A stretch of DNA of 64,000 bases from Paenibacillus fonticola DSM 21315 (GTDB lineage: Bacteria > Bacillota > Bacilli > Paenibacillales > Paenibacillaceae). The position numbers and the translations under genes are program-made. Below the pieces are notes generated by a model. That model made no database searches and was not told where the DNA came from. It saw nothing but the letters and a program-made list of their open reading frames with translations. Positions 13,011-27,077 of the stretch are shown here, piece by piece (positions within the stretch are counted from its first letter, which is position 1; each line of letters starts with the position of its first letter). Location of the stretch: assembly GCF_000381905.1 (NCBI RefSeq), contig NZ_KB907267.1:1-64000 (forward strand). Direction: 5' to 3'.

Positions 13011-13904
13011 ATGATCGTTATTTTTTGTTGTGAACCATTTAATGATAAAGCTGTTGATGCATATTATGAGAGTGAATATTTAGGTGCTAAATCATTAGGA
13101 CTCGATGTTTGTTTAATTTCAATGGAGGATCTGCTATTAAACAATGTAAGTAAAGCGTTAAGAAGTGTTCCAACCGTAGAAGATACGGAAATTGCAATTT
13201 ATCGTGGGTGGATGCTTAAGCCGTATTATTATGAGCTTTTATATAAAGGATTGTTAGCTAAAAATATAAAATTAATAAATACCACTGAAGAATATCTGGA
13301 GTGTCATCACTTCCCTAATGCATATAACCATATAAAACATAGAACTCCGCTTAGCTATTGGCTTGATATTGAAACAATGAATACGAATAATTTAGATGAT
13401 ATTCTAGATAGATTCGGTGAAAAGTCCCTTATTGTTAAGGATTATGTGAAGTCTAGAAAGCATGAGTGGGAAGAGGCGTGTTTTATTCCGTCAGCAGCAA
13501 ATAAAACTCAAGCTCTTCAAGTCATTCATAATTTCATACAAAGGCAAGGCGAGGAGTTGAATGGCGGTATTGTATTAAGGGAGTTTATACACTTGGAGGG
13601 AATAACAAAACACCCCATAAGTGGAATGCCTTTATCTAAAGAGTATCGTTTATTTTTCGTAAATAATAAGTTAGTTCATAGGTTTGAGTACTGGGATGAA
13701 GCTACTTATGATGTGGAAGATAAAGTGAATATGGATGAGTTTTTAGAAATAGCGAGGGGAATTAGAAGTAACTTTTTTACAATAGATATTGCCAAGACCG
13801 CAGCAGGTGAATGAATTGTAATTGAAGTTGGTGACGGACAGGTTTCAGCATTGCCTGAAAAGGTGAGAGTAGAACGATTTTATCAGTCAATTAAGAGCTT
13901 GTGA
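13011..13904 (+). pseudogene. R2K-clade ATP-grasp gene with a late nonsense codon
   Basis: Nearly identical to the intact gene at 30133-31026. The Trp codon in AGEWIVIEVGDGQ is here TGA (13812-13814), which removes the last 30 residues including the catalytic IVIEVGDGQ strand. Upstream motifs remain (IVKDYVKSRKHEWEEACFI). It may still give a 267-residue truncated product, but an ATP-grasp lacking its last metal-binding strand should be inactive. A strong AAGGAAGTGAAG site precedes the ATG. No stalk gene follows here. Confidence 0.8.
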
Positions 13905-13927: not shown

Positions 13928-14044
13928 ATGAGGAAGGTATATGAGAAGATTGGATTTAAGAAAAAGAAATTATTAGAGAAACATGAATGGCATGAAGGGG
14001 AATACCGGGATTGTTGGCTTCTTGAATATGAAGTGCAGAAATGA
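13928..14044 (+). pseudogene. C-terminal fragment of a GNAT acetyltransferase
   Basis: A 38-codon frame reading VYEKIGFKKKKLLEKHEWHE and then a short tail to a stop. This is the typical end of GNAT enzymes (the acetyl-CoA Tyr helix and last strands). No N-terminal part is present. Confidence 0.7.
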
Positions 14045-14166
14045 AAAATACATGTTGTTATTGAACTTCGATGGCAGCTGCATCCCCTAAGATAAAGCTA
14101 TCCAAAGGAAATGGACATCTCGAGTAAATTGAGGCTAGGCGAAAGTCCTTAATAAGGAGTTAATCA

Positions 14167-14703
14167 ATGAAGATAGAACCGAATAAAGAATTTGCTTGTA
14201 AATTAAGCATCATGCTGGGGAGTAAATTAATCCGGTATAAACACTTCCAGTTGTTTTGCGATGATATAATTCTTGAATATACAAAACCACCGTATTGGAT
14301 AATTGAATTGGCAACAGTGCGCTTTCAAGGAAGCGCTATCGAAATAGTCAACAAATATATCAATTCAGAACCATTTATTGATTTTTATAATAGTCATTTG
14401 TTTGATCAATACATTGCTTGTTTGTACATAAAGTACGATCGAAGAGAAATATCTTGGGCTAGTTTTCTACTTGAGTCTGGACAATATGCTGACAATTGCC
14501 AAAGTGTGAAAGAACCCTGTGAGTATTTTTTTGATTTATTAACGAAGTATGAGGACTCTGATTTCAATATTGACCTCGAATATAATCAAAAAGCAGAGAT
14601 ACAAAATAAATTCGCTATGGAAATCGAAGAAATACAATCTATTTATGATATATTTAGAGGTTATTACAAACAGTTCATTAATAAGGAAAGAAAAGCACCT
14701 TAG
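14167..14703 (+). CDS. hypothetical protein, immunity-like
   Basis: A 178-residue soluble protein with a perfect AAGGAG site 9 bp before its ATG. Aromatic-rich N-terminal half (YWIIELATVRFQGSAIEIV) and an acidic helical C-terminus. No family recognised. It stands alone between the ATP-grasp/GNAT remnants and module 7. Confidence 0.6.
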   Translation: MKIEPNKEFACKLSIMLGSKLIRYKHFQLFCDDIILEYTKPPYWIIELATVRFQGSAIEIVNKYINSEPFIDFYNSHLFDQYIACLYIKYDRREISWASFLLESGQYADNCQSVKEPCEYFFDLLTKYEDSDFNIDLEYNQKAEIQNKFAMEIEEIQSIYDIFRGYYKQFINKERKAP

Positions 14704-14824
14704 TAGGGATTACGAAGAAGAAGAGTCAACGTCTAGCACTGTATCTACTTTGAAGTATTACTGAGATCAGCAGAGAAGTTGTTTCAGTTATCCTTCTATA
14801 AGCTTCTAACAAATAACTTAATTC

Positions 14825-14900
14825 CGAGACTTCACTTTCGTGGAGTCTCCTTTTGTGGTTTCCGCTATTTTACAAATAGGCTATAATCTTGGGAAGGGTG
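14825..14900 (+). repeat. junction module copy 7, upstream of biosynthetic operon
   Basis: Hairpin GAGACTTCAC-TTTC-GTGGAGTCTC (one G-T pair), then the conserved block and TATAAT at 14882-14887. It is the only promoter-like element found before the seven-gene operon, whose first ATG is 161 bp downstream. Confidence 0.7.
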
Positions 14901-14926
14901 TAGAAACCTGTAGAAAGTTGTAGAAA
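14899..14926 (+). repeat. three TGTAGAAA repeats, 10-bp period
   Basis: TGTAGAAA at 14899, 14909 and 14919, helically phased, starting 12 bp after the TATAAT of module 7. It could be a regulator-binding site controlling the operon. No other module copy has it. 14927-15048 shows nothing else apart from the ribosome site. Confidence 0.5.
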
Positions 14927-15048
14927 TATAGTAGGGCCGGAGTGCTCAGCCATATGTTCATAGGATTTTTTCTAAATAAAGAGGGGTCTCATTTGAATTT
15001 CATGTAAAAATTATTGCAGCTATGTTCTAGCAACTGGAGGTGGATGTG

Positions 15049-16041
15049 ATGCAGGTTCGGAAGATTAAGATAGTAGGAACGGGTAAGTATTTGCCGGAGC
15101 AAGTGATTACAGCAGAAGACTTAGATAAAAAATTAGGTGTGCCCAGCGGATGGGTGCTGAAAAAAACAGATGTTAGCGTTAGACATGTTGTAAAAGAGGA
15201 AACCGCTTCTCTCATGGGAGCAAGGGCCGCGGAGGCTGCGTTAGAGGATGCTGGGCTTACTTTTTCGGATATCGACTGTCTTGTATCGACAAGCGGCACC
15301 GTGGAGCAGTCCATTCCGTGCACGGCTTCTTTAATCCAAAAGGCATTGGGACAAGAGCATTCTGGAGTTCCTGCGTTTGATATAAATTCTACTTGTTTAA
15401 GTTTTTTAACCGGACTGGATGTTATGTCTTATATGGTAGCGGCAGGGCGGTATCAACGTGTTCTGCTCGTAGCGACGGAAGTGGCTTCGGTTGGCTTGGA
15501 TTGGTCTCATAAAGAAAGTGCGGCTTTGTTTGGAGATGGGGCTGCGGCTGTGGTGATCAGTAGGGCAGAGGAGGATGAAGCCTCCCAGATTATCTGTTCC
15601 TCCATGCAAACATACAGTGCGGGAGCCCATCTCTCCCAAATTAGAGGCGGAGGGACGAAAATTCATCGCCGGCATACCGATGAGATAGAGCCATTCTTAT
15701 TTGAAATGGATGGACGAGCGATCTATAAAATGGCGTCACAAATATTGCCGGATTTTGTCGATGCTTTATTCCAAGTGGGGGGCTGTCAGATGACCGATCT
15801 GAAGCTCGTCATTCCGCATCAAGGCAGCGCGATGGCTATGCGATTGATATCGAAGAAGCTAAGGATAGCGGAACACCAATTAATGAATATTTCACCGACG
15901 CACGGAAATACGATTGCCGCATCGATTCCGATGGCTTTGCATGAAGCTATCAAGCAAGGGCGGATCAAGCGGGGAGAGCGGCTGTTATTGTTAGGCACAT
16001 CAGCGGGCTTCTCTGTCGGAGGAATGATCCTTGAATACTAA
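15049..16041 (+). CDS. KAS III-like 3-oxoacyl-ACP synthase (FabH/OleA superfamily)
   Basis: A 330-residue thiolase-fold condensing enzyme with an intact Cys-His-Asn triad: Cys116 in INSTCLSF, His257 in IPHQGS and Asn287 in THGNTIA. It would condense an acyl thioester with an extender or second acyl chain. The protein is not the housekeeping FabH, to judge from its position in a specialised operon. ATG 15049 lies 8 bp after GGAGG. First gene of a seven-gene unit; the OleD-like reductase two genes downstream suggests the product is a beta-keto acid later reduced. Confidence 0.82.
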   Translation: MQVRKIKIVGTGKYLPEQVITAEDLDKKLGVPSGWVLKKTDVSVRHVVKEETASLMGARAAEAALEDAGLTFSDIDCLVSTSGTVEQSIPCTASLIQKALGQEHSGVPAFDINSTCLSFLTGLDVMSYMVAAGRYQRVLLVATEVASVGLDWSHKESAALFGDGAAAVVISRAEEDEASQIICSSMQTYSAGAHLSQIRGGGTKIHRRHTDEIEPFLFEMDGRAIYKMASQILPDFVDALFQVGGCQMTDLKLVIPHQGSAMAMRLISKKLRIAEHQLMNISPTHGNTIAASIPMALHEAIKQGRIKRGERLLLLGTSAGFSVGGMILEY

Positions 16042-17344
16042 CTCCAAGCAAAGAATGCGAGAGGAAGAAGGGCTAGAGAGGCAAGGAGGACAAGCAGAAC
16101 AAGAAGGACATCAGCGTATCCTGTTAACAGGCGGAAGAGCGCCGGCTACCTTGGATTTAGCTCGTCAGCTTGCTGCGGCGGGGCATCAGGTATATATGGC
16201 GGAGAGCTGTCCGGTTCACCTTTGTGTTCATTCGCGCGCGATCGTCCGAAATTATAGTGTGCCAAAGCCCAATGAGGATTCAGATGGATATATTAGCGCA
16301 CTCCAAGAAATTATTATGCTAGAAAAGATAGACTGGCTGATTCCAACTTGCGAGGAGATATTTTTTGTTGCCCGAGGCTTAGAGCGTTTAAGCCAGCATT
16401 GCTGTGTTTTTACGGATTCACTAGACAAGCTGCGGCGCTTACATAGTAAATGGGAATTTATTGGTCAGACGAGGGAGTTTGGTTTATTAGCACCAGCAAC
16501 AAGTCTATTAACCTCTCAAAAGGATGTGAAGGCCGCTTTGGCTGTCCCGGGGAGATGGGTTTTTAAGCCGGTTTATTCCCGTTTTGCGGCCAAGGTTTTC
16601 ATGGTGCAAACGAGGGTAGCGAGTACAGTTGCTAAGGGCGAGAAGAACAAGGAGCCAGATGAAACAGAAATACCAGATGAAGCTGAAATATTGGAAAAAA
16701 TGAAGCATCTCTCTCCACAGCAGCCTTGGGTTGCACAGCAATTTATGGAAGGAACAGCCTATTGCAGCTACAGCATAGCCAAGCAAGGGAAACTGACGGC
16801 TCATGCGGTTTATCCCGTGAAATTTACGGCTGGCCCTGGTGCTTGTATTAGCTTCGAGGCTGTACATCACCCAGAAATTGACCGCTGGGTCCAGCACTTC
16901 GTGAGTTCAGAGCGATTTACGGGGCAAATCTCCTTTGATTTTATCGTCACCGATGCGGGCCAAGTCTACTCTATTGAATGCAATCCAAGAGCAACAAGTG
17001 GAATTCACCTATTCCGAGCGGAAGATCAGCTTGATCAGGCGTTTTTTTATACTGAAGAAGGGCCAGAGCAGATCATCACCCCGCACCCGGGTCATAAAGC
17101 GATCATTTCTTTAGCGATGTTGTCCTATGGATTGTTGTCGATTCGTTCCTGGTTCAAATTCAAGGAGTGGCTTCGGTTGCTTATGGGCGGCAAAGACGTT
17201 GTGTTCCGATTGCGAGACCCGCAGCCGTTCCTTCAGCAGTTTAAGCTTCTGTGGTGGAATGTCAAAGTAAGCAGGCAGCAGCATATCTCGATCTTAGAAG
17301 CATCAACGCATGATATTGAATGGAATGGTGAGGAAGTGAAATGA
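16031..17344 (+). CDS. ATP-grasp ligase
   Basis: A 437-residue pre-ATP-grasp/ATP-grasp protein. It has an N-terminal Rossmann-like start (RILLTGGRAPATLDLARQLA, about residue 33), the ATP-binding strand GRWVFKPVYSRFAAKV, VAQQFMEGT and the Mg-binding IECNPRATSG. An unusual Glu-rich insert (KNKEPDETEIPDEAEI) interrupts the small ATP-binding lobe. It should ligate a carboxylate to an amine or thiol through an acyl phosphate. The start is a TTG, supported by GGAGGA 7 bp upstream, inside the preceding gene, giving an 11-bp overlap and likely translational coupling. Confidence 0.75.
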   Translation: MNTNSKQRMREEEGLERQGGQAEQEGHQRILLTGGRAPATLDLARQLAAAGHQVYMAESCPVHLCVHSRAIVRNYSVPKPNEDSDGYISALQEIIMLEKIDWLIPTCEEIFFVARGLERLSQHCCVFTDSLDKLRRLHSKWEFIGQTREFGLLAPATSLLTSQKDVKAALAVPGRWVFKPVYSRFAAKVFMVQTRVASTVAKGEKNKEPDETEIPDEAEILEKMKHLSPQQPWVAQQFMEGTAYCSYSIAKQGKLTAHAVYPVKFTAGPGACISFEAVHHPEIDRWVQHFVSSERFTGQISFDFIVTDAGQVYSIECNPRATSGIHLFRAEDQLDQAFFYTEEGPEQIITPHPGHKAIISLAMLSYGLLSIRSWFKFKEWLRLLMGGKDVVFRLRDPQPFLQQFKLLWWNVKVSRQQHISILEASTHDIEWNGEEVK

Positions 17345-18345
17345 GTACAAGCGTACTAGTGACAGGCGGGACGGGGTTTCTCGGAAGGAGCCTAGCACAA
17401 ACCCTAAGTAAGCTGGGATATCAGGTTACAGCGACTGGACGAAATGAATCCATAGGGGAGGAATTGAAAAACGAAGGTATCGCCTTCATCCCCTGTGATC
17501 TTGCGGACACCGAGCGGATCGTTCAGCTATGTGCTGGACAAGACTTTGTGTTTCATTGCGGCGCATTGTCTTCGCCTTGGGGGAAATATAGCCACTTTTA
17601 TGATAGTAATGTGATCGGTACCCGAAATATATTGGAAGGCTGCCGGCAGCATCAGGTGAGCAGGTTGATTTATGTGTCGACACCGAGCTTATATTTTGAT
17701 TATACCGATCGCTTGAACGTACCAGAATCAGCACCGCTTCCGGATCAAGCCGTGAATGCGTATGCCGCAACGAAGCGTCTGGCCGAAGGAGAAGTGGATC
17801 TTGCTTTTGAGGCAGGACTTCCCGTGATTACCATCCGTCCTCGTGCGATCTTTGGCCCCGGGGATCAGGCGATACTTCCGCGGCTGCTTCAAGCGAACCG
17901 ACAAGGACGCGTTCCCTTAATTCATGGCGGCCAGGCTCTGATGGATTTGACCTACATCGATAATGTGGTTGATGCGCTAATCCAATGCATGTCCTCCCCT
18001 GCATCGACGCTAGGCAAAAAGTACAATATTACCAATGGCGAGCCGGTAGCATTGATAGATTTACTTCAGCAATTATTTGATAAGCTGGGGGAACCGCTGC
18101 GCGGCAAGCATATTTCCTATCCTCTGGCCTACGGGGCAGCCGCCTTGCTAGAGTGGAAAGCCCACCTGACCAGGAGTAAAAAGGAACCTCTGCTCACTCG
18201 CTATACGGTGGGTCTATTAGGAAAGACGCTTACGCTAGATATATCAGCAGCGAAACAAGATTTGAACTATACTCCACGTAAAAGTATTGATGAAGGGATA
18301 TCCGAATATGTCACATGGATCAAACAACGAGACTCACTTATTTAG
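17341..18345 (+). CDS. NAD(P)-dependent reductase, OleD/3-beta-HSD-like
   Basis: A 334-residue extended SDR. The nucleotide motif TGGTGFLG is at residues 8-15, NVIGTRNILEGC precedes VSTPS, and the catalytic pair is YAATK. Further motifs GPGDQAILPRL, TYIDN, ITNGEP and SIDEGI align by eye with OleD, the reductase of the bacterial olefin/beta-lactone pathway that reduces a 2-alkyl-3-keto acid. It overlaps the ATP-grasp stop by 4 bp. Together with the KAS III-like enzyme it suggests a keto-acid to hydroxy-acid step. Confidence 0.8.
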   Translation: MSTSVLVTGGTGFLGRSLAQTLSKLGYQVTATGRNESIGEELKNEGIAFIPCDLADTERIVQLCAGQDFVFHCGALSSPWGKYSHFYDSNVIGTRNILEGCRQHQVSRLIYVSTPSLYFDYTDRLNVPESAPLPDQAVNAYAATKRLAEGEVDLAFEAGLPVITIRPRAIFGPGDQAILPRLLQANRQGRVPLIHGGQALMDLTYIDNVVDALIQCMSSPASTLGKKYNITNGEPVALIDLLQQLFDKLGEPLRGKHISYPLAYGAAALLEWKAHLTRSKKEPLLTRYTVGLLGKTLTLDISAAKQDLNYTPRKSIDEGISEYVTWIKQRDSLI

Positions 18346-19171
18346 CACCCGTGTTAAATTGACTCTGTTCTCGGCGGGAAGCTGTTCCCAATCTGAGAAA
18401 ATAACGATCCGTGGCGGAGAGTGGCGGACGATTCAAATTCCTGCCCTGTTTGCCTGCATGGAGCATCCAAGGTTAGGCCCCATCTTATTTGATACGGGGT
18501 ATTCGGAACGATTCTTCCAAGCAGCAAGTCGTTTTCCTTATTCGCTCTATCGAAGGGCGACCCCTGTTTCTATCACAGAAAGGGAGACGGCGGTCTATCA
18601 ATTACAAGAGGCAGGGATTGAATTAAGCGACATTAAATATGTCGTTTTATCCCACCTTCATGCAGATCATATTGCCGGGGTTTGTGATTTTCCTGAAGCT
18701 TCGTTTATTTATTTAAAATCAGCTTACGATAAAATGAAGCACCGCAGAGGGCTAGCGGCGGTTCGGGCAGGCTTCCTGCCGGACTTATTACCGGGTGATT
18801 TTGAGGAGCGTTCTCTACCGATAGATGAACAACAACGGATCTCGCTGCCCTCTAGTTTTCCATTTGAGCGGGGCTTGGATCTTTTTGGCGATGGAAGTGT
18901 GATTGCAGTGGATTTGCCAGGACATGCTGCTGGTCAAATTGGCGTTCTACTTCATACGGGGGATCAGCCGTATTTTTTATGTGCGGATGCTGTATGGTCC
19001 AGTCGAGCTTACCGTGAATCCCGGCCTCCCCATTGGCTGGCTGGCCTGATTATGGATGATCGGCGGCAGTATCAAGAAAGCTTCCAGCGCATATGCCAAT
19101 TCCACAAGCAGCACCCAGAATATCGAATTATTCCATCCCATTGCAGTGAAATCGGGGAATCTCTTACATAG
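18308..19171 (+). CDS. MBL-fold metallo-hydrolase
   Basis: A 287-residue metallo-beta-lactamase-fold enzyme. The zinc motif HLHADHIAG, a later LPGHAAGQIG histidine, ADAVWS aspartate and IPSHC histidine are all present, so it should be active. It resembles lactonase-type members (AHL lactonase group); a lactone or thioester substrate made by the operon is plausible. ATG 18308 has AAGGGA 9 bp upstream and lies 38 bp inside the preceding gene; in-frame starts further upstream look worse. Confidence 0.75.
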   Translation: MSHGSNNETHLFSTRVKLTLFSAGSCSQSEKITIRGGEWRTIQIPALFACMEHPRLGPILFDTGYSERFFQAASRFPYSLYRRATPVSITERETAVYQLQEAGIELSDIKYVVLSHLHADHIAGVCDFPEASFIYLKSAYDKMKHRRGLAAVRAGFLPDLLPGDFEERSLPIDEQQRISLPSSFPFERGLDLFGDGSVIAVDLPGHAAGQIGVLLHTGDQPYFLCADAVWSSRAYRESRPPHWLAGLIMDDRRQYQESFQRICQFHKQHPEYRIIPSHCSEIGESLT

Positions 19172-19182
19172 GGGAGGGAGTC

Positions 19183-20565
19183 ATGTTGATCGACAAAGGA
19201 GCGATTGTATACCACTATTTACGGACAAAATTTCATCAAAGGCCGGCCAATCGCGGGGAGATTGAACAGTGGCAGGAACAGAGAGTGCTAAGCCATGTTC
19301 CTTTTGTCCGCAAGCATTCTGCTTTTTATCGCGAGCTTTGGAAGGAGTATACGGATGCCCAGTGGCGGCAATTTCCGATCATGGATAAAGAGCTGATGAT
19401 GGAGCATTTTGACCCATTAAATACGGTGGGAATCACGAAAGAAGAAGCTTTTGCCGTGGCGTATCAAGCGGAAAACAGTCGGGACTTTGCCCCTACCATC
19501 GGTTCGATTACGGTCGGACTCTCATCAGGGACATCTGGAAATCGCGGTATTTTCCTCGTCAGTCCGCAGGAAAGAAGGGCATGGGCTGGAACAGTCCTCG
19601 CTAAAATGCTGCCTCATTCATTGCTGCAAAAGGAGAGCATCGCTTTTTTCCTGCGGGCGAATAGCAATTTATATGGCAGTGTCGGCAGCCAGCGGCTTCA
19701 ATTTCATTATTATGATTTGTTAAGTCCGGTTCAGGAGCATATTGAACGATTGAACGAGCAGCGTCCAGGATTAATCGTCGCTCCGCCATCGATGCTCCGG
19801 ATTTTGGCTCAAGCAAGTCAACAAGGGCATTTGCGCATCCATCCCCATAAAATCATCTCTGTTGCTGAAGTGCTGGATCCGTTGGATCGGAAGGCCATAG
19901 AGACGCAGTTCGAACAAAAGGTACATCAAGTCTACCAATGCACGGAAGGATTTCTTGCTTGTACTTGTTCGCATGGCACCCTTCACCTGAACGAAGATAT
20001 TGTAATCATTGAAAAAGAATATTTAGATCAGAAGCTTGGTCGATTTGTCCCGATCATTACGGACTTTTCGCGAAGGACGCAACCGATCGTGCGCTACCGC
20101 TTAAATGATGTCCTAACCGAACGTGCTGAGCCATGTCCTTGTGGTTCTCCTTTTCTAGCATTAGAGTCCATAGAGGGACGCTGCGATGATATATTCTATG
20201 GCTACAGTGTACATGACAACAAGCTAAAGCCGATATTTCCTGACTTTATAAGCCGGGCGATTATTCATGCTTCCGAGAAAGTGCTTGAATATTTAGCGAT
20301 TCAACATTCGCCTGACCGCGTTGAAATTGTCTTGAGGGTCGATGAGGCTGGCTCTAGTTCTGCACCCATTGAACAGCAGATCACTCATGCCATGAATGAT
20401 TTATTTCTTAAAATGAATTGCAAGCCGCCAGCCATTGAATTTAGCTTATATGATCAGGGTGTTCACGCTAAATACGATAAGCATGGGGAGCTAACCGACC
20501 TGAAAAAACTGCGCCGCGTGGAAAGGAGATTTCAGCTTGGAGAGGATACAGATCCGTTTATATGA
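19183..20565 (+). CDS. F390-synthetase/PaaK-like adenylate-forming enzyme
   Basis: A 460-residue member of the coenzyme F390 synthetase-like branch of the ANL superfamily. Motifs: the ATP-phosphate loop GLSSGTSGNRG (about 107-117), YQCTEGF, and RYRLNDVL in place of YRTGD. A CPCG pair lies near residue 323, and the C-terminal lobe includes KYDKHGELTDLKKLRRVERR. It would activate a carboxylate as an acyl-AMP. The ribosome site GGGAGGGAG is 3 bp before ATG. It follows the hydrolase gene by 11 bp. Confidence 0.78.
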   Translation: MLIDKGAIVYHYLRTKFHQRPANRGEIEQWQEQRVLSHVPFVRKHSAFYRELWKEYTDAQWRQFPIMDKELMMEHFDPLNTVGITKEEAFAVAYQAENSRDFAPTIGSITVGLSSGTSGNRGIFLVSPQERRAWAGTVLAKMLPHSLLQKESIAFFLRANSNLYGSVGSQRLQFHYYDLLSPVQEHIERLNEQRPGLIVAPPSMLRILAQASQQGHLRIHPHKIISVAEVLDPLDRKAIETQFEQKVHQVYQCTEGFLACTCSHGTLHLNEDIVIIEKEYLDQKLGRFVPIITDFSRRTQPIVRYRLNDVLTERAEPCPCGSPFLALESIEGRCDDIFYGYSVHDNKLKPIFPDFISRAIIHASEKVLEYLAIQHSPDRVEIVLRVDEAGSSSAPIEQQITHAMNDLFLKMNCKPPAIEFSLYDQGVHAKYDKHGELTDLKKLRRVERRFQLGEDTDPFI

Positions 20566-21694
20566 TGCAGATACCATAGACGATCTCCCATGGCCGGACA
20601 CCAAAGATGGGCAGTACGCTAAACAGTTTCTTGTGCCATTCGTGAAGCGCCAGCCCTCGCATTATATCAACAATATTCAAGCGAAATATATGGCGGTATT
20701 TCTTGATGGTATCGTGCTGCCTATTTCAATCACTGAAACGCAATATGACAATTCCTATGTATGCTCTCCTTATACGCATTATGTAAGCTATGCCAAGCAA
20801 GAGCTCGTATTGCTCCAAAATGCACTGCTGCGTAAAGGCTTGTCAGCCCTGCTCGGCGGATTAGGGCAATTGTTTAAAGCGAGCCAGATCAATAAGGCGG
20901 TCCATGTAAACAACTGGTTCGTCTCAACGAATTTATATCCCGAATTAACACCGGATCAACTAAGGGCGCTGCACTCTTTTTTAACCGAGCAGTTCCCTGA
21001 TTATGCGATCATTTATCGATCCCTTAATGAAGCGAACCATGAGGAGCTTATGCAGGAGTTTCGCCAATTCAATTATAAAATGATAGCATCCCGCCAAATC
21101 TATCTCGTTCATCCTAGCCAGTCTACCTTTTTAAGTTCCAAGTCACGCAAGCTGTTAAAAAAGGACTATGCCTTAATCGATCGTCATGGCTATGAGATGT
21201 TAGATAATGATCAATTGTCAGATCAAGATATTTCGCGAATATTGGAGCTGTACAATGCTTTGTATTTGCAAAAATATTCGATGTACAATCCGCAATTTAA
21301 CGAAGATTTTATCGCTCTCGCGATTAAGAATAAGATTCTTCATCTTCAGGCGCTTCGGAAAAATGGGCGTATTGATGCCGTGATAGGTTATTTTTGCCGC
21401 AACGGAGTCATGACGACCCCATTGCTTGGTTACGATCTTTCTTTGCCAAGAGAAATCGGTTTGTACCGGATGTTGTCTGCACTTTTATTCTACATTGCAC
21501 TAGAGAACGGTCATTTATTAAACAGAAGCTCCGGTGCTGCTCATTTCAAAAGGAAGCGGGGTGCTGCGGCTGAGATGGAGTACTCGGCTGTTTACGATAG
21601 ACACTTACCGTTTCAAAGGCGGCTTTGCTGGTCATTTTTGCAAACCGTCCTTAACAAAATTGGAATTCCTATCATCCGAAAATATAAGCTCTAA
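20537..21694 (+). CDS. GNAT/FemAB-like acyltransferase-type protein
   Basis: A 385-residue protein with a weakly conserved N-terminal half and a C-terminal GNAT-like half (SSKSRKLLKKDYALIDRHG, LYNALYLQKYSMYNPQF, IDAVIGYFCRNGVMTTPLLG, RSSGAAHFKRKRGA in pieces). This resembles FemAB/GNAT-type acyl or aminoacyl transfer proteins seen in lipid and peptide pathways. It starts with TTG, 8 bp after AAGGAG located within the end of the preceding gene (29-bp overlap), so it is translationally coupled. It probably attaches the activated acyl chain to an acceptor. Confidence 0.6.
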   Translation: MERIQIRLYDADTIDDLPWPDTKDGQYAKQFLVPFVKRQPSHYINNIQAKYMAVFLDGIVLPISITETQYDNSYVCSPYTHYVSYAKQELVLLQNALLRKGLSALLGGLGQLFKASQINKAVHVNNWFVSTNLYPELTPDQLRALHSFLTEQFPDYAIIYRSLNEANHEELMQEFRQFNYKMIASRQIYLVHPSQSTFLSSKSRKLLKKDYALIDRHGYEMLDNDQLSDQDISRILELYNALYLQKYSMYNPQFNEDFIALAIKNKILHLQALRKNGRIDAVIGYFCRNGVMTTPLLGYDLSLPREIGLYRMLSALLFYIALENGHLLNRSSGAAHFKRKRGAAAEMEYSAVYDRHLPFQRRLCWSFLQTVLNKIGIPIIRKYKL

Positions 21695-21715
21695 CTATAA
21701 AGGAGGCTGCAGGGC

Positions 21716-22567
21716 ATGATGCAAAACAGACCGATTGCTTTGGTGACGGGAACATCCAGCGGTTTTGGGTTACTGATCACGCTGGCATTAGCCGGAAGCG
21801 GCTATCATGTCATTGCCACGATGCGCAATATCACGAAGCAGGATGCGTTGATGCAAGCTGCGGAGCAAAAAGGTCTAAGCCAGCATATCGAGTGCTGTTC
21901 CCTTGATGTGAGCGATCAGCAAGCAATTGGCAAGACCGTGGATGAACTGATAAAGCGTTATGGGCGCATTGATGTGCTTGTGAATAATGCCGGCATCTCA
22001 CTTGGCGGCTTTGTGGAGGAGATTCCACTAGAGGACTGGATCCACGCCATGGACACGAATTTTTTCGGTCTTGTTGCTCTAACCCAAGAAGTATTGCCAC
22101 ATATGCGATCGAGAAAATACGGGAAAATTATTAACATCAGCAGCATCAGCGGCAGACTTGGCTTTCCCGGGTACGGGCCTTATGCGGCTTCAAAGTTTGC
22201 GGTGGAGGGATTCAGTGAATCGCTTCGTTTGGAAATGCTGCCATACGGCGTTTATGTGTCATTAGTTGAACCAGGCGCATACAAAACCGCGATTTGGTCC
22301 AAAGGCTTCGATTATATTTCGATGAAGGCAAGGAAAGATTCACCCTATCAGGAGCCTCTTGCAGCCATTCTGGCCTACAGCAATAACGTAGCTAACAACG
22401 CCAGCGATCCGCAGGATGTGGCCAGGACGGTGGTGCAAATCGCCCAAGCTCGCTATCCCAAATTGCGTTACGTGTTAGGAAAGGGAGCATGGACTGCGAT
22501 ATGGGGGAAGGCGCTTCTCCCTTGGAAATGGTTCGAGCAAATTGTATTGCGCCAGCTCCGGAAATAG
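21716..22567 (+). CDS. short-chain dehydrogenase/reductase
   Basis: A 283-residue classical SDR. The cofactor motif TGTSSGFG lies near residue 13, NNAGIS follows, and the catalytic YAASK is around residue 159 with ISSISG before it. No acidic residue dictates NAD versus NADP clearly; MRN after beta-2 hints at NADP. Last gene of the operon, 21 bp after the previous gene, with AAAGGAGG upstream of ATGATG (21716 or 21719). It would supply a second redox step on the product. Confidence 0.82.
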   Translation: MMQNRPIALVTGTSSGFGLLITLALAGSGYHVIATMRNITKQDALMQAAEQKGLSQHIECCSLDVSDQQAIGKTVDELIKRYGRIDVLVNNAGISLGGFVEEIPLEDWIHAMDTNFFGLVALTQEVLPHMRSRKYGKIINISSISGRLGFPGYGPYAASKFAVEGFSESLRLEMLPYGVYVSLVEPGAYKTAIWSKGFDYISMKARKDSPYQEPLAAILAYSNNVANNASDPQDVARTVVQIAQARYPKLRYVLGKGAWTAIWGKALLPWKWFEQIVLRQLRK

Positions 22568-22601
22568 GAATTAAGAATATCGGCAGAATAGTTAATATAC
22601 A

Positions 22602-22720
22602 ACGTCACTTTCCGTGACGTTTAGAGGACGGACATTGAGAATAGAAGATGTAATTATAGATACGGGGTCTTTTATTGTTTCCTCTAATCTACAAATGAAC
22701 TATAACCTTCGATAAAGAAG
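22602..22720 (+). repeat. junction module copy 8 (degenerate), after the operon
   Basis: A perfect ACGTCAC / GTGACGT hairpin (22602-22620) is followed by TTGTTTCCTCTAATCTACAA and TATAAC at 22701-22706. TAATATTGAAACCAAACTAA just after it resembles a piece of the acetyltransferase gene at 8118-8140, a possible leftover of a lost gene. No gene is evident up to 22882. Confidence 0.55.
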
Positions 22721-22882
22721 GTACATGGCCTAATATTGAAACCAAACTAAGAGGGAGAGGCCAAGCTACTACTCCAGACCAAGTCATTGTTGAATTTCCA
22801 TTCGGTATAACAGTGTAACATACCAAAGAGCAGTGGAAATATAATCAGTTTCTTCAGTCTCTTCATTTTGAGATGACCTGCT

Positions 22883-23617
22883 TTAACTTTTTTCACTATG
22901 CTTTAGACCCTTCAGTATAAAGGCAGAAAGGCAGCCGCAAAGAAGTAAGCTTATGCAACTAAGGATTACTTGACTTGTTGATGCGTCATAGTATCCAGAA
23001 ATAGTAAATACAGCCGTAATGGGATAAAGGGCTTTTAGGAAATTTGACATACTCATAAATAGTCCGGCAAAAGAATAAATTTCAGCAAATAACAGCGCAA
23101 GCCAATATCCCTTTTTCATACGCGATACAAAAGCAATAATGGGTGAGATAGCAAGGAATATACCTAAGCCGTCCAGAAAATATGCTTTCAGAAAACCTAA
23201 AACCATTTCTAGTGACAAATCAGAAAAATGTAAGATGGCTTCAACCGAAAATGTTATAGTAAAGAGCAGCAAGTAAAGGAGTATGCTAAACGCAAAAGTA
23301 ACAATCATTTTTACAGCGGTTAAGCTCACTTCATTTACGGGAATAAGCCGCAGAGATTTTATAGTGTCCTCCTGTTCTTCACGACAAATCATATAACTGC
23401 CCAAAAGGGCAATGACCGCGGGAAGAACAAAAAAAGTTGCCCATGGTTGAGCCATAGTCATATACCAGCCTGCATTGTCTATATTCCGAGAGCCGTCATA
23501 CACATCCTGCCCCCCTAAAAAAACAATAACCGCTACCATAACTGTTGCAAAAACGGTAATCCAAACAATATTTAAACGGCGAATCTTTTGACATTCCGCC
23601 CAAAGTAATTTTTTCAT
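22883..23617 (-). CDS. ABC-2 type permease of a lantibiotic-type exporter (second)
   Basis: A 244-residue membrane protein with about six membrane spans starting with a short cytoplasmic segment (MKKLLWAECQKIRRLNIVW). It matches the EpiG/MutG/SpaG group of lantibiotic-immunity permeases by size and arrangement. It is the last gene of the minus-strand unit regulator-kinase-ATPase-permease-permease. It would help remove a peptide antibiotic from the membrane. Confidence 0.75.
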   Translation of the reverse strand: MKKLLWAECQKIRRLNIVWITVFATVMVAVIVFLGGQDVYDGSRNIDNAGWYMTMAQPWATFFVLPAVIALLGSYMICREEQEDTIKSLRLIPVNEVSLTAVKMIVTFAFSILLYLLLFTITFSVEAILHFSDLSLEMVLGFLKAYFLDGLGIFLAISPIIAFVSRMKKGYWLALLFAEIYSFAGLFMSMSNFLKALYPITAVFTISGYYDASTSQVILSCISLLLCGCLSAFILKGLKHSEKS

Positions 23618-23627
23618 GATTCACACC

Positions 23628-24365
23628 TCACTTTCTTCTTCCCAATGCGATATTTGCAAGTAGTACTGCAACAATATCCCAAACGCAAATACAAAGAAAT
23701 GCTAAAGGAATGTTAAGTGCTTGTGTAAATACAAGACCCGGAATATCTCCGTTTCGCATGACAATAACTGCCATACTGGATAATGGGTGTAGATACATAT
23801 TTACCGTCATTAAAATAAAGCCGAGAAAGACATAGACCAATGTTATGGAAACTGGGAGAATGTATCCTTTTTGCGACGCAGATAATGCCAAAATCGGTAG
23901 CATTGTAAAAGAAGTGAGAACACCAATCTCTAAACATTTTTTCAGCAAATATAAGACGCTTCCCCAGTCAAATTCGACATATCCGGGAAGGACACTAAAC
24001 ATAACAGAAGCAACGGCTGTAATCAGCATGAAGCAAATGGAGTAAATCAAAACTAAAAAAAATTTACTGAAGAAGTATCCCATTTTGCTGATAGGCACAA
24101 TCCAAAGTTGTTTGAGCATATCGTGCTGCTTTTCCTCGTACATAAGCATAGTGCAAAGTGTTCCCAAAACGACAGGCAAGATAAACCAAAGCGTGTAACC
24201 AAACGCTGACCATCTATAAAACTGTAACGGATCACCACCTAATTCTTTCACATATTTGAAATATAATAGTGCGAAAAACGGCATAAAGAGGGCGGCTAAC
24301 AACATGAGCCAGACAAATTTCCTGCGGCGCAGTTTAAGGAATTCTATCTGAATAAGTCTAAGCAA
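23628..24365 (-). CDS. ABC-2 type permease of a lantibiotic-type exporter (first)
   Basis: A 245-residue membrane protein starting MLRLIQIEFLKLRRRKFVWL, the typical opening of EpiE/MutE/SpaE-like permeases, with about six membrane spans. It overlaps the ATPase gene by 8 bp and is separated from the second permease by 10 bp. The two would form a heterodimeric channel with the ATPase. Confidence 0.78.
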   Translation of the reverse strand: MLRLIQIEFLKLRRRKFVWLMLLAALFMPFFALLYFKYVKELGGDPLQFYRWSAFGYTLWFILPVVLGTLCTMLMYEEKQHDMLKQLWIVPISKMGYFFSKFFLVLIYSICFMLITAVASVMFSVLPGYVEFDWGSVLYLLKKCLEIGVLTSFTMLPILALSASQKGYILPVSITLVYVFLGFILMTVNMYLHPLSSMAVIVMRNGDIPGLVFTQALNIPLAFLCICVWDIVAVLLANIALGRRK

Positions 24366-25281
24366 TGCCTTCTCCTCCTGTGATTTTTTTGAAATAGTCC
24401 TCTAAGGTGTCATTACAAAGCCCCGAACTCATAACGGTTATATTCTGCGTCACAAGGGCTTTATTGATTTCGCCCATATCCAGAGCGGTGTCATAAAGCC
24501 GTAAAGTATGGTCGTCTTGAACAGAATAATCTTTCAAGTGAAATTGACGTTCTAAAATCAGTAACGCTTTTGGAATGTCTGAAACTTGCAGCAAGACATA
24601 TTTACGGTTTTTCTTTTCCAGTTCGCTCATGCTGCTTTCTTCCAAAAGAATGCCGTGGTCGATGATTCCAATATCATCAGCCAATAATGAAATTTCCGAA
24701 AGAATATGACTGGAAATAAGAATTGTCTTTCCTTGTGTGGCGCTCAAATTCTTAATAAAGTCTCTTACTTCTGCAATGCCGATAGGGTCAAGACCGTTTG
24801 TAGGTTCGTCCAAAATCAGCATTTCCGGGTCATGCAAAATAGCGTTTGCAATACCAAGACGCTGCTTCATTCCAAGGGAATACTTACTAAACAATTTTTT
24901 GTCTTTATAAGGTAATCCTACTACTTTCAATGCGGTTTCAACTGCGTGTGGGGCGGCTGTACCGCGCAGCTTCGCAAAAATCTCCAAGTTTTCCGTTCCT
25001 GTCAAATTTGGATAAAATCCCGGTGTTTCGATAATAGCACCGATACGGGGATATACTCGTTTTTCCCGGCCTTTGATACTCTGTCCGAATACATTTACCT
25101 CGCCAGAAGTGATTGGAGTCAACCCTAAAATCATTTTCATAATCGTGGTTTTTCCGGCTCCGTTACGTCCTAACAGACCGTAAATCCGACCTTTTTTTAC
25201 ATGGAGATTGACTGAGTTAACTGCTGTCTGCTCACCGTAAACTTTTGTCAGTTGTTTCGTCTCAATCACAAAATCATTCAT
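24358..25281 (-). CDS. ABC transporter ATP-binding protein, bacitracin/lantibiotic type
   Basis: A 307-residue ATPase from ATG 25281 (MNDFVIETKQLTKVYGE), chosen because it has a GAGGATA site; an upstream in-frame start is possible. Walker A GRNGAGKTT, signature YSLGMKQRLGIA and Walker B LILDEPTNGLD are intact, followed by the H-loop SSHILSE. The C-terminal extension is typical of BcrA/NukF/CprA-like exporters that protect against cationic peptides. It is preceded by three 11-bp-spaced repeats that probably bind the adjacent response regulator. Confidence 0.85.
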   Translation of the reverse strand: MNDFVIETKQLTKVYGEQTAVNSVNLHVKKGRIYGLLGRNGAGKTTIMKMILGLTPITSGEVNVFGQSIKGREKRVYPRIGAIIETPGFYPNLTGTENLEIFAKLRGTAAPHAVETALKVVGLPYKDKKLFSKYSLGMKQRLGIANAILHDPEMLILDEPTNGLDPIGIAEVRDFIKNLSATQGKTILISSHILSEISLLADDIGIIDHGILLEESSMSELEKKNRKYVLLQVSDIPKALLILERQFHLKDYSVQDDHTLRLYDTALDMGEINKALVTQNITVMSSGLCNDTLEDYFKKITGGEGIA

Positions 25282-25329
25282 ATAAAATATCCTCACTTTC
25301 AATAATTGTGCTTTCGCAATATGCTAACC

Positions 25330-25400
25330 AATATAATGGCAGAACAATCACAGTTAAAAGTATAAAACATTAACCTTGCCAAAACCTTGTCGTAACCTTG
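25330..25400 (-). promoter_or_regulatory. response-regulator boxes and promoter of the ABC genes
   Basis: On the minus strand CAAGGTT occurs three times at an exact 11-bp period (plus-strand AACCTTG at 25372, 25383, 25394). Downstream TTAACT (25357-25352), a 16-nt spacer and TATATT form a promoter. Direct repeats of about one helical turn are typical of OmpR-type regulators such as SpaR. Confidence 0.65.
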
Positions 25401-25428
25401 CTTTTATCTTGTTTTAGCAGTAAGGCAG

Positions 25429-25454
25429 TAAAAAAGCCCTGCGTCTACAGGGCT
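25429..25454 (-). terminator. terminator after the histidine kinase gene
   Basis: On the minus strand AGCCCTG-TAGACG-CAGGGCT followed by TTTTTT; the stem overlaps the kinase stop codon. It separates the regulator/kinase transcript from the ABC genes. Confidence 0.8.
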
Positions 25455-26362
25455 TTAGGAAGTAATATTGTAAATATGGTTTCCGTACCGGGAGTGCTCT
25501 CGGCAGTGATAGTTCCTTTGTGAACGCTGACAAGTTCCTTAGCAATAGCCAAACCCAAACCATTTCCTTTTGCAACCCGTGAATGGTCGCATTGGTACAT
25601 TCTTTCAAAAATATGTGGGAGGTTGTCAGAAGATATACCTTTTCCGTTATCTGTTATTACAATTTTGGCCTGCTGTTCATTCTCAAAAATGCGTAAGGCC
25701 ATATTGTCACCTCCACTGTGTGTAATAATATTTTGTAATAGATTATTGAGAATACGGCTATATGCAGTTGCGTCTATGCGCATGGAATACTCTGTTTCAG
25801 GTATGTCAAATTCATATTCAAAATGACTGTTTTCTAAAATAGGAATCCAATCAGCTATAATATTACGGGATAACTCATTCAAATCAAAAATCTCAAAATG
25901 AAAATTTTGTTCCCCGGAATCTAATTTAACCCATTCAAACAGATTTTCTACAAAATGTTTTAAGTGCTGAGCTTTATCAGACGCAACATGGATATATTCG
26001 TCCTTTTCTTCTCCGACAACAATTTTACTTTCCATTGCTTCCAAATAACCAACCAAAGAAGCAAGTGGAGTTTTCACATCATGGGAAAGACTTGTCATTA
26101 GCCGTTTGTATGCCTGCTCTGATTGTTTTTGCTGAATAAGTCGTGATTGGCTGTTGATTGCAATTTCGTTAATATCATAACAAATTTGCTTTGTCATATC
26201 GCTTTCGCTTGCTAAAACCCGTCGATTAAGATTTCCGTTTTTTATATCTTCTAAAGCGTCTTTTATAAGTGTAAGCTGTGTTCGGACACGCCGCAAAACA
26301 GAAACAAGGTACGCTATAATAAGTAGGGTAAGAACCAATGCAAAAAGTAGATAAACACTCAT
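25445..26362 (-). CDS. sensor histidine kinase of the ABC resistance locus
   Basis: A 305-residue kinase with one N-terminal membrane segment (YLLFALVLTLLIIAYLVSVL) and almost no extracellular part, as in the intramembrane-sensing or CprK/SpaK-like kinases linked to peptide exporters. It has a HAMP-like linker, the H-box SLSHDVKTPLASL, N-box LNNLLQNI, and ATP-lid motifs DNGKGI and GNGLGLAIA. It lies 7 bp after the response regulator gene and phosphorylates it in response to an antimicrobial peptide, by inference. Confidence 0.85.
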   Translation of the reverse strand: MSVYLLFALVLTLLIIAYLVSVLRRVRTQLTLIKDALEDIKNGNLNRRVLASESDMTKQICYDINEIAINSQSRLIQQKQSEQAYKRLMTSLSHDVKTPLASLVGYLEAMESKIVVGEEKDEYIHVASDKAQHLKHFVENLFEWVKLDSGEQNFHFEIFDLNELSRNIIADWIPILENSHFEYEFDIPETEYSMRIDATAYSRILNNLLQNIITHSGGDNMALRIFENEQQAKIVITDNGKGISSDNLPHIFERMYQCDHSRVAKGNGLGLAIAKELVSVHKGTITAESTPGTETIFTILLPKAL

Positions 26363-26369
26363 ATTTATC

Positions 26370-27077
26370 TCAAGCCTCCTTATTAAAACGATAGCCTACA
26401 CCTCGAACTGTTAAAATATAAAATGGACGGTCGGGGTCTGGTTCAATCTTTTTGCGTAATTTACTGATGAAAGACATAATGTTACTATCGTCAAAAGCAT
26501 ATTCATCTTCCCACACTTGCGTATAAATCTGTTTTTTGGTAAACACCCGTCCTTTATTAGAAGATAGAAACGAAAGCAAGTCAAACTCTTTGCTTGTAAG
26601 TTCAACTGGAATATCATTGACAGAAACAATGCGATTTGCTTTATCAATGACCATTCCTTTCAGCACCAAGCACTCCGTCTCTATTTCCGTCGTAGGGTTT
26701 AAGGTGGTATAGCGGCGGATAAGAGAATTGACACGAGCCATCAGCTCGTTAATACTGAACGGCTTTGTCAAATAATCATCAGCACCAAGCCGCAGCCCGA
26801 ACACTTTATCTTCCTCGTCATTTTTGGCGGTTAGCATGAGTACCGGGATATTACTTGTTTCTCTAATTCTTTTTAGAACTTGAAAACCGTCTATATCCGG
26901 CATCATTACGTCCAAAATCACAAGAGAAAGTGAGCAGCTGTTTTTATTTTCGTCAGCCAGACGCAGCCCCTCCACACCGCCATGTGCAATAATAGCAGAC
27001 AAATTCTCTTGCTCTACACATTTTTTCATAAGAGCGCAAAGCTCTTTGTCATCATCTATAATCAAAACACTATTCAT
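26370..27077 (-). CDS. OmpR-family response regulator
   Basis: A 235-residue regulator. The receiver domain has the acidic cluster IIDDD at the N-terminus, the phospho-acceptor Asp in LVILDVMMPDIDG and Lys in YLTKPF. The winged-helix DNA-binding domain includes LTSKEFDLLSFL and VRGVGYRFN. AAAGGAGCTG precedes the ATG. It presumably binds the CAAGGTT repeats in front of the ABC genes. Confidence 0.9.
   Translation of the reverse strand: MNSVLIIDDDKELCALMKKCVEQENLSAIIAHGGVEGLRLADENKNSCSLSLVILDVMMPDIDGFQVLKRIRETSNIPVLMLTAKNDEEDKVFGLRLGADDYLTKPFSINELMARVNSLIRRYTTLNPTTEIETECLVLKGMVIDKANRIVSVNDIPVELTSKEFDLLSFLSSNKGRVFTKKQIYTQVWEDEYAFDDSNIMSFISKLRKKIEPDPDRPFYILTVRGVGYRFNKEA

What the first reader, a model, noticed from the sequence alone, without database searches (positions are those of the whole stretch)
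15049..22567. Undescribed seven-gene biosynthetic operon with OleA/OleD-like logic
KAS III-like synthase with intact Cys116/His257/Asn287, an ATP-grasp ligase, a reductase with many OleD-type motifs, an MBL hydrolase with lactonase-like motifs, an F390-synthetase-like adenylating enzyme, a GNAT/FemAB-like protein and an SDR. Gene overlaps show it is one transcript. Olefin/beta-lactone pathways use a thiolase-fold condensing enzyme, an OleD reductase and an ANL enzyme, so a head-to-head acyl condensation followed by reduction and activation is a reasonable model, with ATP-grasp and acyltransferase steps adding an amine or amino acid. No carrier-protein gene was seen, so CoA substrates or a housekeeping ACP are implied.
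Basis: partly seen in the sequence, partly recalled or inferred. Interest (0 to 1): 0.72.

Follow-up and report, generated by a model that had tools for sequence, protein, structure and literature searches.

The report
Widespread undescribed lipid biosynthesis operon
A seven-gene operon in a Paenibacillus-like bacterium contains a four-enzyme core that turns up again in distant bacteria, including some E. coli, and that probably builds an unknown decorated lipid by joining fatty chains.

Summary
The seven genes are real, at the stated coordinates, intact and tightly spaced. The conserved unit is a four-gene core: KAS III-like synthase, OleD-like reductase, metallo-beta-lactamase-fold (MBL) hydrolase, F390/PaaK-like adenylating enzyme. 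It recurs in Bacillota, Fusobacteriota and alpha-, beta- and gammaproteobacteria: 28 of 33 loci picked by the adenylating enzyme hold all three partners; a relative lies in 672 of 5426 E. coli genomes. ATP-grasp, GNAT and SDR are one tailoring set; other lineages use glycosyltransferases, desaturase/hydroxylase/PAP2, sulfotransferase or Rieske proteins. The synthase splits from FabH rows (100/100). Its nearest solved relatives are MxnB and CorB, which fuse two acyl chains; it lacks OleA's catalytic glutamate in 37 of 37 rows. Hydrolase and adenylating enzyme are not OleB or OleC. So 'OleA/OleD-like logic' is partly right; olefin or beta-lactone as product is unproven. The GNAT model folds most like FemX, MprF and Sbb17, so an aminoacylated lipid is my guess for Paenibacillaceae. 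I found no paper naming the cluster. The product is unknown.

The parts
15049..16041 (+). KAS III-like condensing enzyme (core), CorB/MxnB-type signature EQxxP, CLSF, PHQxS; Cys116-His257-Asn287
   Evidence: (PRK07204 475 bits, cut-off 402)
16031..17344 (+). ATP-grasp ligase (accessory), carbamoyl-phosphate-synthase / L-amino-acid-ligase type fold
   Evidence: (PRK06849 411 bits, cut-off 406)
17341..18345 (+). OleD-like extended SDR reductase (core), TGxTGFLG and Y141xxxK145
   Evidence: (NF042422 266 bits, cut-off 580)
18287..19171 (+). Metallo-beta-lactamase-fold hydrolase (core), full two-metal ligand set, Trp at the lactonase Tyr site
19183..20565 (+). F390-synthetase/PaaK-like adenylate-forming enzyme (core), TIGR02304
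   Evidence: (555 bits, cut-off 252)
20537..21694 (+). Tandem-GNAT protein with FemX/MprF/Sbb17-like predicted fold (accessory)
   Evidence: (no family)
21716..22567 (+). Classical SDR oxidoreductase (accessory), PRK06914
   Evidence: (395 bits, cut-off 320); its relative lies between the MBL and F390 genes in L056

Best explanation
It is a biosynthetic operon for an unidentified polar lipid. Shown: a co-inherited four-enzyme core with intact active sites, and lineage-specific tailoring genes. Inferred: the KAS III-like enzyme joins two acyl chains (Claisen condensation, as CorB/MxnB do) to a 2-alkyl-3-oxoacyl product; the OleD-like enzyme reduces the ketone to a 2-alkyl-3-hydroxyacyl unit, the kind of backbone seen in mycolic acids; the MBL hydrolase frees the acid from its thioester (or opens a lactone); the F390/PaaK-like enzyme makes the acyl-AMP and hands it to an acceptor. 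In Paenibacillaceae the ATP-grasp ligase and the FemX/MprF-like transferase would add amino-acid groups and the last SDR a further reduction; other lineages would use sugars, sulfate or chain modification instead.
For: Core KAS-OleD-MBL-F390 in 28 of 33 F390-picked loci from Bacillota, Fusobacteriota and proteobacteria; all 11 loci picked by the synthase, all Paenibacillus, also hold the adenylating enzyme. Distances of the four proteins correlate at r 0.90-0.94 over 29 loci (0 of 2000 permutations as high). Best solved relatives of the synthase are the two-chain fusing MxnB and CorB, clearly in the window (254/252 bits, FabH 194), narrowly in E. coli (171/157, FabH 150); shared EQxxP, CLSF, PHQxS. 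OleD is the top model of the reductase (Shewanella OleD for E. coli). Tallied adenylation-motif residues and a C-terminal Lys are conserved in 40-42 of 42. Tailoring: FA hydroxylase, FA desaturase, PAP2, sulfotransferase; GT21 and EryCIII/GT28-like glycosyltransferases. GNAT fold: Sbb17 Z 17.0, FemX Z 16.4, MprF Z 14.3. One natural MBL-F390 fusion (P. ihumii).
Against: No OleA/PpyS-type glutamate, so nothing proves two-chain chemistry; the Cys-His-Asn triad is shared with FabH. The broad PRK09352 synthase-3 model is met narrowly. The order of the MBL and adenylation steps is a guess. Tandem-GNAT folds also include N-myristoyl transferases (Z about 12) and mycothiol synthase (12.3), and Foldseek's own first match is a protein of unknown function, with TM-scores of at most 0.51 by query length among the rows shown. 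The tree holds no OleA or chalcone-synthase rows, MxnB/CorB sit on a long branch, and core against MxnB/CorB is only 80/55. Five of 33 loci lack part of the core nearby. No carrier-protein model matched the operon's proteins.
Confidence: 0.42

Rival explanations
1. FabH-like one-chain chemistry: the KAS III-like enzyme extends one acyl thioester with malonyl-ACP, the OleD-like enzyme reduces the 3-oxo group, the MBL is the thioesterase, and the adenylating enzyme attaches the 3-hydroxy acid to an amine or sugar.
For: Glu base missing in 37 of 37; Cys-His-Asn as in FabH; FabH-type models score 240-252 bits, PRK09352 just over its cut-off; E. coli synthase scores nearly as well with FabH as with CorB.
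Against: Tree split from five FabH-type rows 100/100; FabH's Asn after PHxA and its SGF/AGF are Ser (37 of 37) and mostly LSF here; OleD acts on 2-alkyl-3-oxo acids (family name); housekeeping enzymes already make 3-hydroxyacyl chains (general knowledge).
Confidence: 0.3
2. A second, non-orthologous ole pathway: the adenylating enzyme forms a beta-lactone (OleC role) and the MBL opens or decarboxylates it (OleB role), giving beta-lactones or olefins.
For: Same four roles, lactonase-related MBL, and an MBL-F390 fusion that parallels the oleBC fusions reported in passages of PMC7064751.
Against: No OleB/OleC-type Pfam or NCBIfam match among the seven proteins (for the last SDR and the reductase only the best 25 NCBIfam models were shown); no OleA Glu; amino-acid, sugar and sulfate tailoring genes do not fit a plain hydrocarbon.
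Confidence: 0.13
3. Alpha-pyrone or lactone signal synthesis like photopyrones or corallopyronin.
For: Closest solved synthases are CorB/MxnB; lactonase-related MBL.
Against: Pyrone formation by PpyS needs no reductase or adenylating enzyme (PMC4578411, part 1), yet both are in the core of 28 of 33 loci; no gene is annotated as LuxR in the 12 of 14 plasmid stretches that carry annotation.
Confidence: 0.08

Closest known systems
oleABCD / oleACD (olefin and beta-lactone pathways)
   Same: Thiolase-fold condensing enzyme plus OleD-family reductase plus adenylate-forming enzyme plus hydrolase; a natural hydrolase-ligase fusion in one genome
   Different: Synthase lacks OleA's Glu and is nearer CorB/MxnB; ligase is PaaK/F390-type; hydrolase is MBL fold; extra amino-acid, sugar or sulfate genes
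MxnB / CorB (myxopyronin, corallopyronin two-chain ketosynthases)
   Same: Best solved sequence matches; EQxxP, CLSF, PHQxS; Val against Ile/Leu at the OleA Glu site
   Different: The core has a reductase, MBL and adenylating enzyme; long branch between them
TIGR02304, PRK07204, PRK06849, PRK06914 (NCBI protein families)
   Same: Four window proteins score over these cut-offs
   Different: The models name single proteins; no pathway is stated in the hits
FemX / MprF / Sbb17 aminoacyl-tRNA-dependent transferases
   Same: Predicted fold of the GNAT protein (Z 13-17)
   Different: About 10% identity; donor and acceptor unknown; no Pfam match for the window protein, a weak Acetyltransf_6 match for its Paraburkholderia relative

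Membership tests
OleA | Glutamate (E117 in X. campestris) before a proline, catalytic base | tested here: not met
   Ile or Leu before the proline in 37 of 37 rows; Glu rule from passages of PMC7064751 and part 1 of PMC4578411
OleA | Cys-His-Asn triad of the thiolase fold | tested here: met
   37 of 37; also true of FabH, so not diagnostic
oleABCD operon | OleB (alpha/beta hydrolase) and OleC (AMP-binding ligase) homologues | tested here: not met
   MBL fold and TIGR02304 instead; no alpha/beta hydrolase or AMP-binding Pfam match among the seven at E 0.001
OleD (NF042422) | Score over the curated cut-off of 580 bits | tested here: not met
   266 bits, but the best model
FabH (TIGR00747) | Score over cut-off 292 | tested here: not met
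   240 bits
FabH-type synthases (PRK09352, beta-ketoacyl-ACP synthase 3) | Score over cut-off 249 | tested here: met
   252 bits, narrowly; the E. coli relative 211, under it
FabH | Grouping with FabH in a tree | tested here: not met
   split 100/100 from five FabH-type rows: three solved FabH and two other KAS III of the own genome
CorB/MxnB two-chain ketosynthases | Shared active-site signature | tested here: met
   EQxxP, CLSF, PHQxS; a set of my own making, not a published test
CorB/MxnB two-chain ketosynthases | Condenses two carrier-bound long chains | not testable with these tools
   needs enzyme assay
TIGR02304 F390 synthetase-related protein | Score over cut-off 251.9 | tested here: met
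   555 bits
AHL lactonase (AttM/AiiA) | Two-metal ligand set with Tyr three residues after the bridging Asp (roles recalled), and score over cut-off | tested here: not met
   Metal ligands in 38 of 38; Trp in 37 of 38 at the Tyr site; 90 bits against cut-off 390
Fem/MprF aminoacyl-tRNA transferase | Tandem-GNAT fold close to FemX/MprF | tested here: met
   Z 13-17 over about 250-290 residues; a shared fold shows no function
Fem/MprF aminoacyl-tRNA transferase | Uses aminoacyl-tRNA | not testable with these tools
   needs assay

The most novel reading that the evidence does not exclude
A phylum-crossing lipid pathway unknown until now: a non-orthologous counterpart of oleABCD that makes mycolate-like 2-alkyl-3-hydroxy acids in Bacillota, Fusobacteriota and proteobacteria (including about one complete E. 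coli genome in eight), activates them as acyl-AMP and joins them to lineage-specific head groups, in Paenibacillaceae an amino acid taken from tRNA.
Probability: 0.25. Interest if true: 0.85.

Novelty: new variant of a known kind. Interest (0 to 1): 0.6.

Why it matters
A conserved enzyme set for which I found no assigned product sits in unrelated bacteria, among them 672 of 5426 complete E. coli genomes. One gene removal and a lipid comparison would make its product directly testable. If two-chain condensation is right, it would add a second, independent route to alpha-branched beta-hydroxy lipids outside the mycolic-acid bacteria and the ole pathway.

Tried and rejected
FabH: rejected by tree and signatures and TIGR00747, though PRK09352 is narrowly met. 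True ole operon: rejected by the missing Glu, OleB and OleC. AHL lactonase role for the MBL: Tyr replaced by Trp in 37 of 38. A search of 149 genomes for PRK09258, which I recall as the OleA family, to get OleA rows (E limit 1e-70) rang nowhere, controls included, so no OleA row is in the tree; this is a gap. Rfam: no match over gathering scores in 14000-23500. Promoter and terminator scans found fewer sites than shuffles (9 against 13.4; 5 against 8.2). Papers: 'F390 synthetase-related protein' 0; 'F390 synthetase' with 'synthase III' 1, the ladderane paper PMC2649909, whose passages mention an F390 synthetase-annotated ligase in Desulfotalea psychrophila in another gene setting; a six-term search, 290 papers of which I saw 25 titles and abstract starts, none on this cluster; 'coenzyme F390 synthetase' 6, two of them looked into by passage, gene-list mentions only; 'CoF synthetase' 0; ole and beta-lactone terms 6; family accessions 0; E. 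coli gene set 0; operon gene set 0. CorB/MxnB 5, of which I read part 1 of 3 of PMC4578411 and passages of PMC5724707 and PMC12304814. Most subscription papers and all preprints are outside this library. I could not sample proteobacterial genomes evenly, so their prevalence is known only from plasmid records and E. coli.

Exceptions to the core among 33 F390-picked loci: L049 and L050 (F390 relative alone), L019 (F390 plus ATP-grasp within the 8 kb flanks fetched), L055 (decayed: synthase start followed by MBL, reductase and ATP-grasp lost), L067 (synthase gene about 8 kb away, genes scattered). The 33 are 19 genome regions (of 20 non-window genomes that rang; the one split over two contigs, G145, was left out) and 14 plasmid records of the 84 that matched (30 listed). 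Two of the 14 (L021, L063) carry no annotation and were read by my own ORF comparison. Rows dropped before counts: repeat loci of the same genome (L052, L054, L055), L053 in the tree, five near-copies of 34 in the distance test.
Full report
What is there. The window (a 64 kb piece of contig C23 of a 6.31 Mb genome) holds seven intact + strand genes at 15049-22567. Neighbouring genes overlap by 11, 4, 59 (if the MBL starts at TTG 18287) and 29 bases or are 11 and 21 bases apart, which fits one transcript; promoter and terminator scans add nothing. G+C is 47% in the operon, 34% and 39% in the 5 kb before and after, 41% in the window.

Families (Pfam). Synthase: PRK07204 475 bits (cut-off 402); PRK09352, a broad synthase-3 model, 252 (cut-off 249); FabH TIGR00747 240 (cut-off 292). 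ATP-grasp: PRK06849 411 (cut-off 406). Reductase: OleD NF042422 is the top model (266, cut-off 580), Shewanella OleD next (234), first non-Ole model 127. MBL: AttM lactonase model 90 (cut-off 390). Adenylating enzyme: TIGR02304 555 (cut-off 252). SDR: PRK06914 395 (cut-off 320). GNAT protein: no family.

The unit is a four-gene core. Neighbourhoods of relatives were mapped by protein comparison. The same KAS, OleD-like, MBL and F390-like set lies in Paenibacillus and relatives, Pontibacillus, a Paenibacillus urinalis plasmid with all seven genes, E. coli, Pseudomonas sp. FeN3W, Ketogulonicigenium, Burkholderia (L021), Fusobacterium (L063), Paraburkholderia, Paracoccus, Rhizobium and Roseateles. 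The order is KAS-OleD-MBL-F390 in most of these, with the ATP-grasp gene (where present) after KAS in the Bacillota loci, but KAS comes last in Fusobacterium L063 and in L045, and an SDR splits MBL and F390 in L056. Of 33 loci chosen by the adenylating enzyme alone, 28 have all three partners (80 bits or more) on the same strand within 6.5 kb; the five exceptions are under Tried and rejected. All 11 loci chosen by the synthase, all Paenibacillus, also hold the adenylating enzyme. Protein distances of the four members correlate at 0.90-0.94 over 29 loci, with 0 of 2000 permutations as high; shared ancestry of the hosts adds to this, so it shows that the genes travel together, not how. Prevalence of TIGR02304 at E 1e-60, own genome included: 9 of 398 Bacillota genomes and 13 of 40 of the window's genus; one of 14 control genomes rings, Deinobacterium chartae, whose neighbourhood I did not see. 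The E. coli version matches 672 of 5426 E. coli genomes (671 over at least 80% of the query); in the one record whose surroundings I read it lies between narI and purU. So it is a patchy accessory trait. Decay in P. woosongensis (L014/L055) fits that.

Tailoring differs by lineage. The window and 21 of 24 other Paenibacillaceae loci have the ATP-grasp with GNAT and/or SDR; L051 and L060 lack all three and L014 is decayed. In L056 the SDR sits between the MBL and F390 genes, so it belongs to the pathway. Paraburkholderia: ATP-grasp and GNAT. Rhizobium and Roseateles: GNAT, Rieske protein and a nearby ATP-grasp on the other strand. E. coli and Burkholderia: PAP2, fatty-acid hydroxylase, fatty-acid desaturase. 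Fusobacterium L063, L045 of the window's class and L051 of its genus: GT21 and/or EryCIII/GT28-like glycosyltransferases next to, or one gene from, the core. Ketogulonicigenium and two Paracoccus: divergent TetR and sulfotransferase (Pfam for one of them). Lipid-modifying and head-group genes recur, which is why I read the core as the maker of a lipid anchor.

The synthase. Its best solved relatives are MxnB 4v2p (254 bits) and CorB 4yuc (252), then FabH (194 and below), with OleA (3s21/3s23) at 66. The E. coli synthase has the same top two, but with little margin (171 and 157 against 150 for FabH). In a maximum-likelihood tree five FabH-type rows (three solved FabH, two other KAS III of the own genome) are split from 36 core synthases plus MxnB/CorB with 100/100 support; core rows against MxnB/CorB are only 80/55, and the program warns of long branches. 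Core synthases share with MxnB/CorB the Gln of EQxxP (37 of 37), LSF after the Cys (Leu 34, Ser 35, Phe 37 of 37) and the Ser of PHQxS (37 of 37), where the FabH-type rows have other residues, SGF/AGF and Asn. OleA's general base is a Glu followed by Pro (passages of PMC7064751); PpyS has it too and CorB/MxnB have V94 there (part 1 of 3 of PMC4578411). My alignment puts CorB V94 on window Ile92, and 37 of 37 core synthases have Ile or Leu. PMC5724707 (passages) says MxnB must bind two carrier-bound long chains and has two substrate tunnels. Hence two-chain condensation is plausible by kinship with CorB/MxnB, but the OleA mechanism is not.

The other core enzymes. The reductase keeps TGxTxxLG and YxxxK. 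The MBL keeps all metal ligands (roles recalled) in 38 of 38 rows but has Trp in 37 of 38 where AHL lactonases have Tyr. In the adenylating enzyme the tallied residues of the SGTSG loop, YxxTE, Asp309, GRxDD and a C-terminal Lys are kept in 41 or 42 of 42 rows, Asp294 in 40; solved relatives are PaaK-type ligases at low score. In P. ihumii the MBL and F390 genes are one 756-codon frame. Passages of PMC7064751 report oleBC fusions, a suggestive parallel, though one genome's fusion may be neutral.

Accessory proteins by predicted fold. The GNAT model (mean pLDDT 81.9, 10 rows) is nearest in the second-look alignment to Sbb17/Sba18 (Z 17.0-16.6, rmsd 3.5-3.6 A, 262-265 residues), FemX (Z 16.4, 4.1 A, 289) and MprF (Z 14.3, 4.0 A, 259), ahead of N-myristoyl transferases and mycothiol synthase (about 12). 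Foldseek itself puts a staphylococcal protein of unknown function first, then MprF-type synthases, with TM-scores of at most 0.51 by query length in the rows shown. Sbb17, FemX and MprF move amino acids from tRNA (entry titles; MprF recalled). The ATP-grasp model (mean pLDDT 86.2) matches L-amino-acid ligases first by Foldseek and purine, carbamoyl-phosphate and PylC-type enzymes within about 3 Z units of each other. Together they make an amino-acid addition likely for Paenibacillaceae, not certain.

Mechanism, shown and inferred. Shown: co-conservation, intact active sites, kinship. Inferred: condensation of two chains, reduction, release, acyl-AMP activation, then head-group attachment. The main rival is one-chain FabH-like chemistry with the same later steps. 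The experiment that separates them is the synthase assay in the next steps.

Novelty. I found no paper that names this cluster, within an open library that leaves out most subscription journals. Single families are known to NCBI. I rate it a new variant of a known kind (two-chain condensing pathways such as ole and CorB/MxnB), interest 0.6.

Noticed in passing
window 14804-14900 and copies at 1002, 2771, 3840, 6284, 7769, 10316, 30013: A hairpin-bearing repeat (stem 14826-14849) lies just upstream of the operon: 11 matches in the genome counting itself, 8 of them on this contig; similar stretches also flank the operon in P. bouchesdurhonensis L004. Folding z-score -2.5, no Rfam match.
   Followed up: partly
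L004 5495-6652: P. bouchesdurhonensis has a second, partial copy of the synthase 5' part with its upstream stretch, about 3 kb before the operon.
   Followed up: no
L055 7436-8649 (L014 9007-10220): P. woosongensis carries a decayed operon: synthase start followed directly by the MBL; ATP-grasp and reductase are gone, F390, GNAT and SDR remain.
   Followed up: partly
L005 12416-14686: P. ihumii reads MBL and F390-like enzyme as one 756-codon frame.
   Followed up: partly
L017 5188-12069: E. coli version of the cluster with PAP2, fatty-acid hydroxylase and desaturase, next to narGHJI; in 672 of 5426 complete E. coli genomes, 671 places on chromosomes and 2 on plasmids.
   Followed up: yes
L065 794-1030: In Paracoccus alcaliphilus an annotated phosphopantetheine-binding protein and NRPS lie a few kb from the core, beyond the sulfotransferase, on the other strand; no such gene was seen in the window's operon.
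   Followed up: no
L019, L067: Two Pseudomonas plasmids of 0.9-1.0 Mb carry the F390-related gene with an ATP-grasp relative among unknown genes; in L067 synthase, reductase and MBL relatives are scattered over about 9 kb.
   Followed up: no
window 13011-13814: An R2K-clade ATP-grasp protein lies upstream of the operon, of another Pfam family than the operon's own ATP-grasp.
   Followed up: no
window 22883-27077: Minus-strand genes that look like two ABC-type permeases, an ABC ATPase, a histidine kinase and a response regulator follow the operon (read from the ORF translations, not scanned).
   Followed up: no
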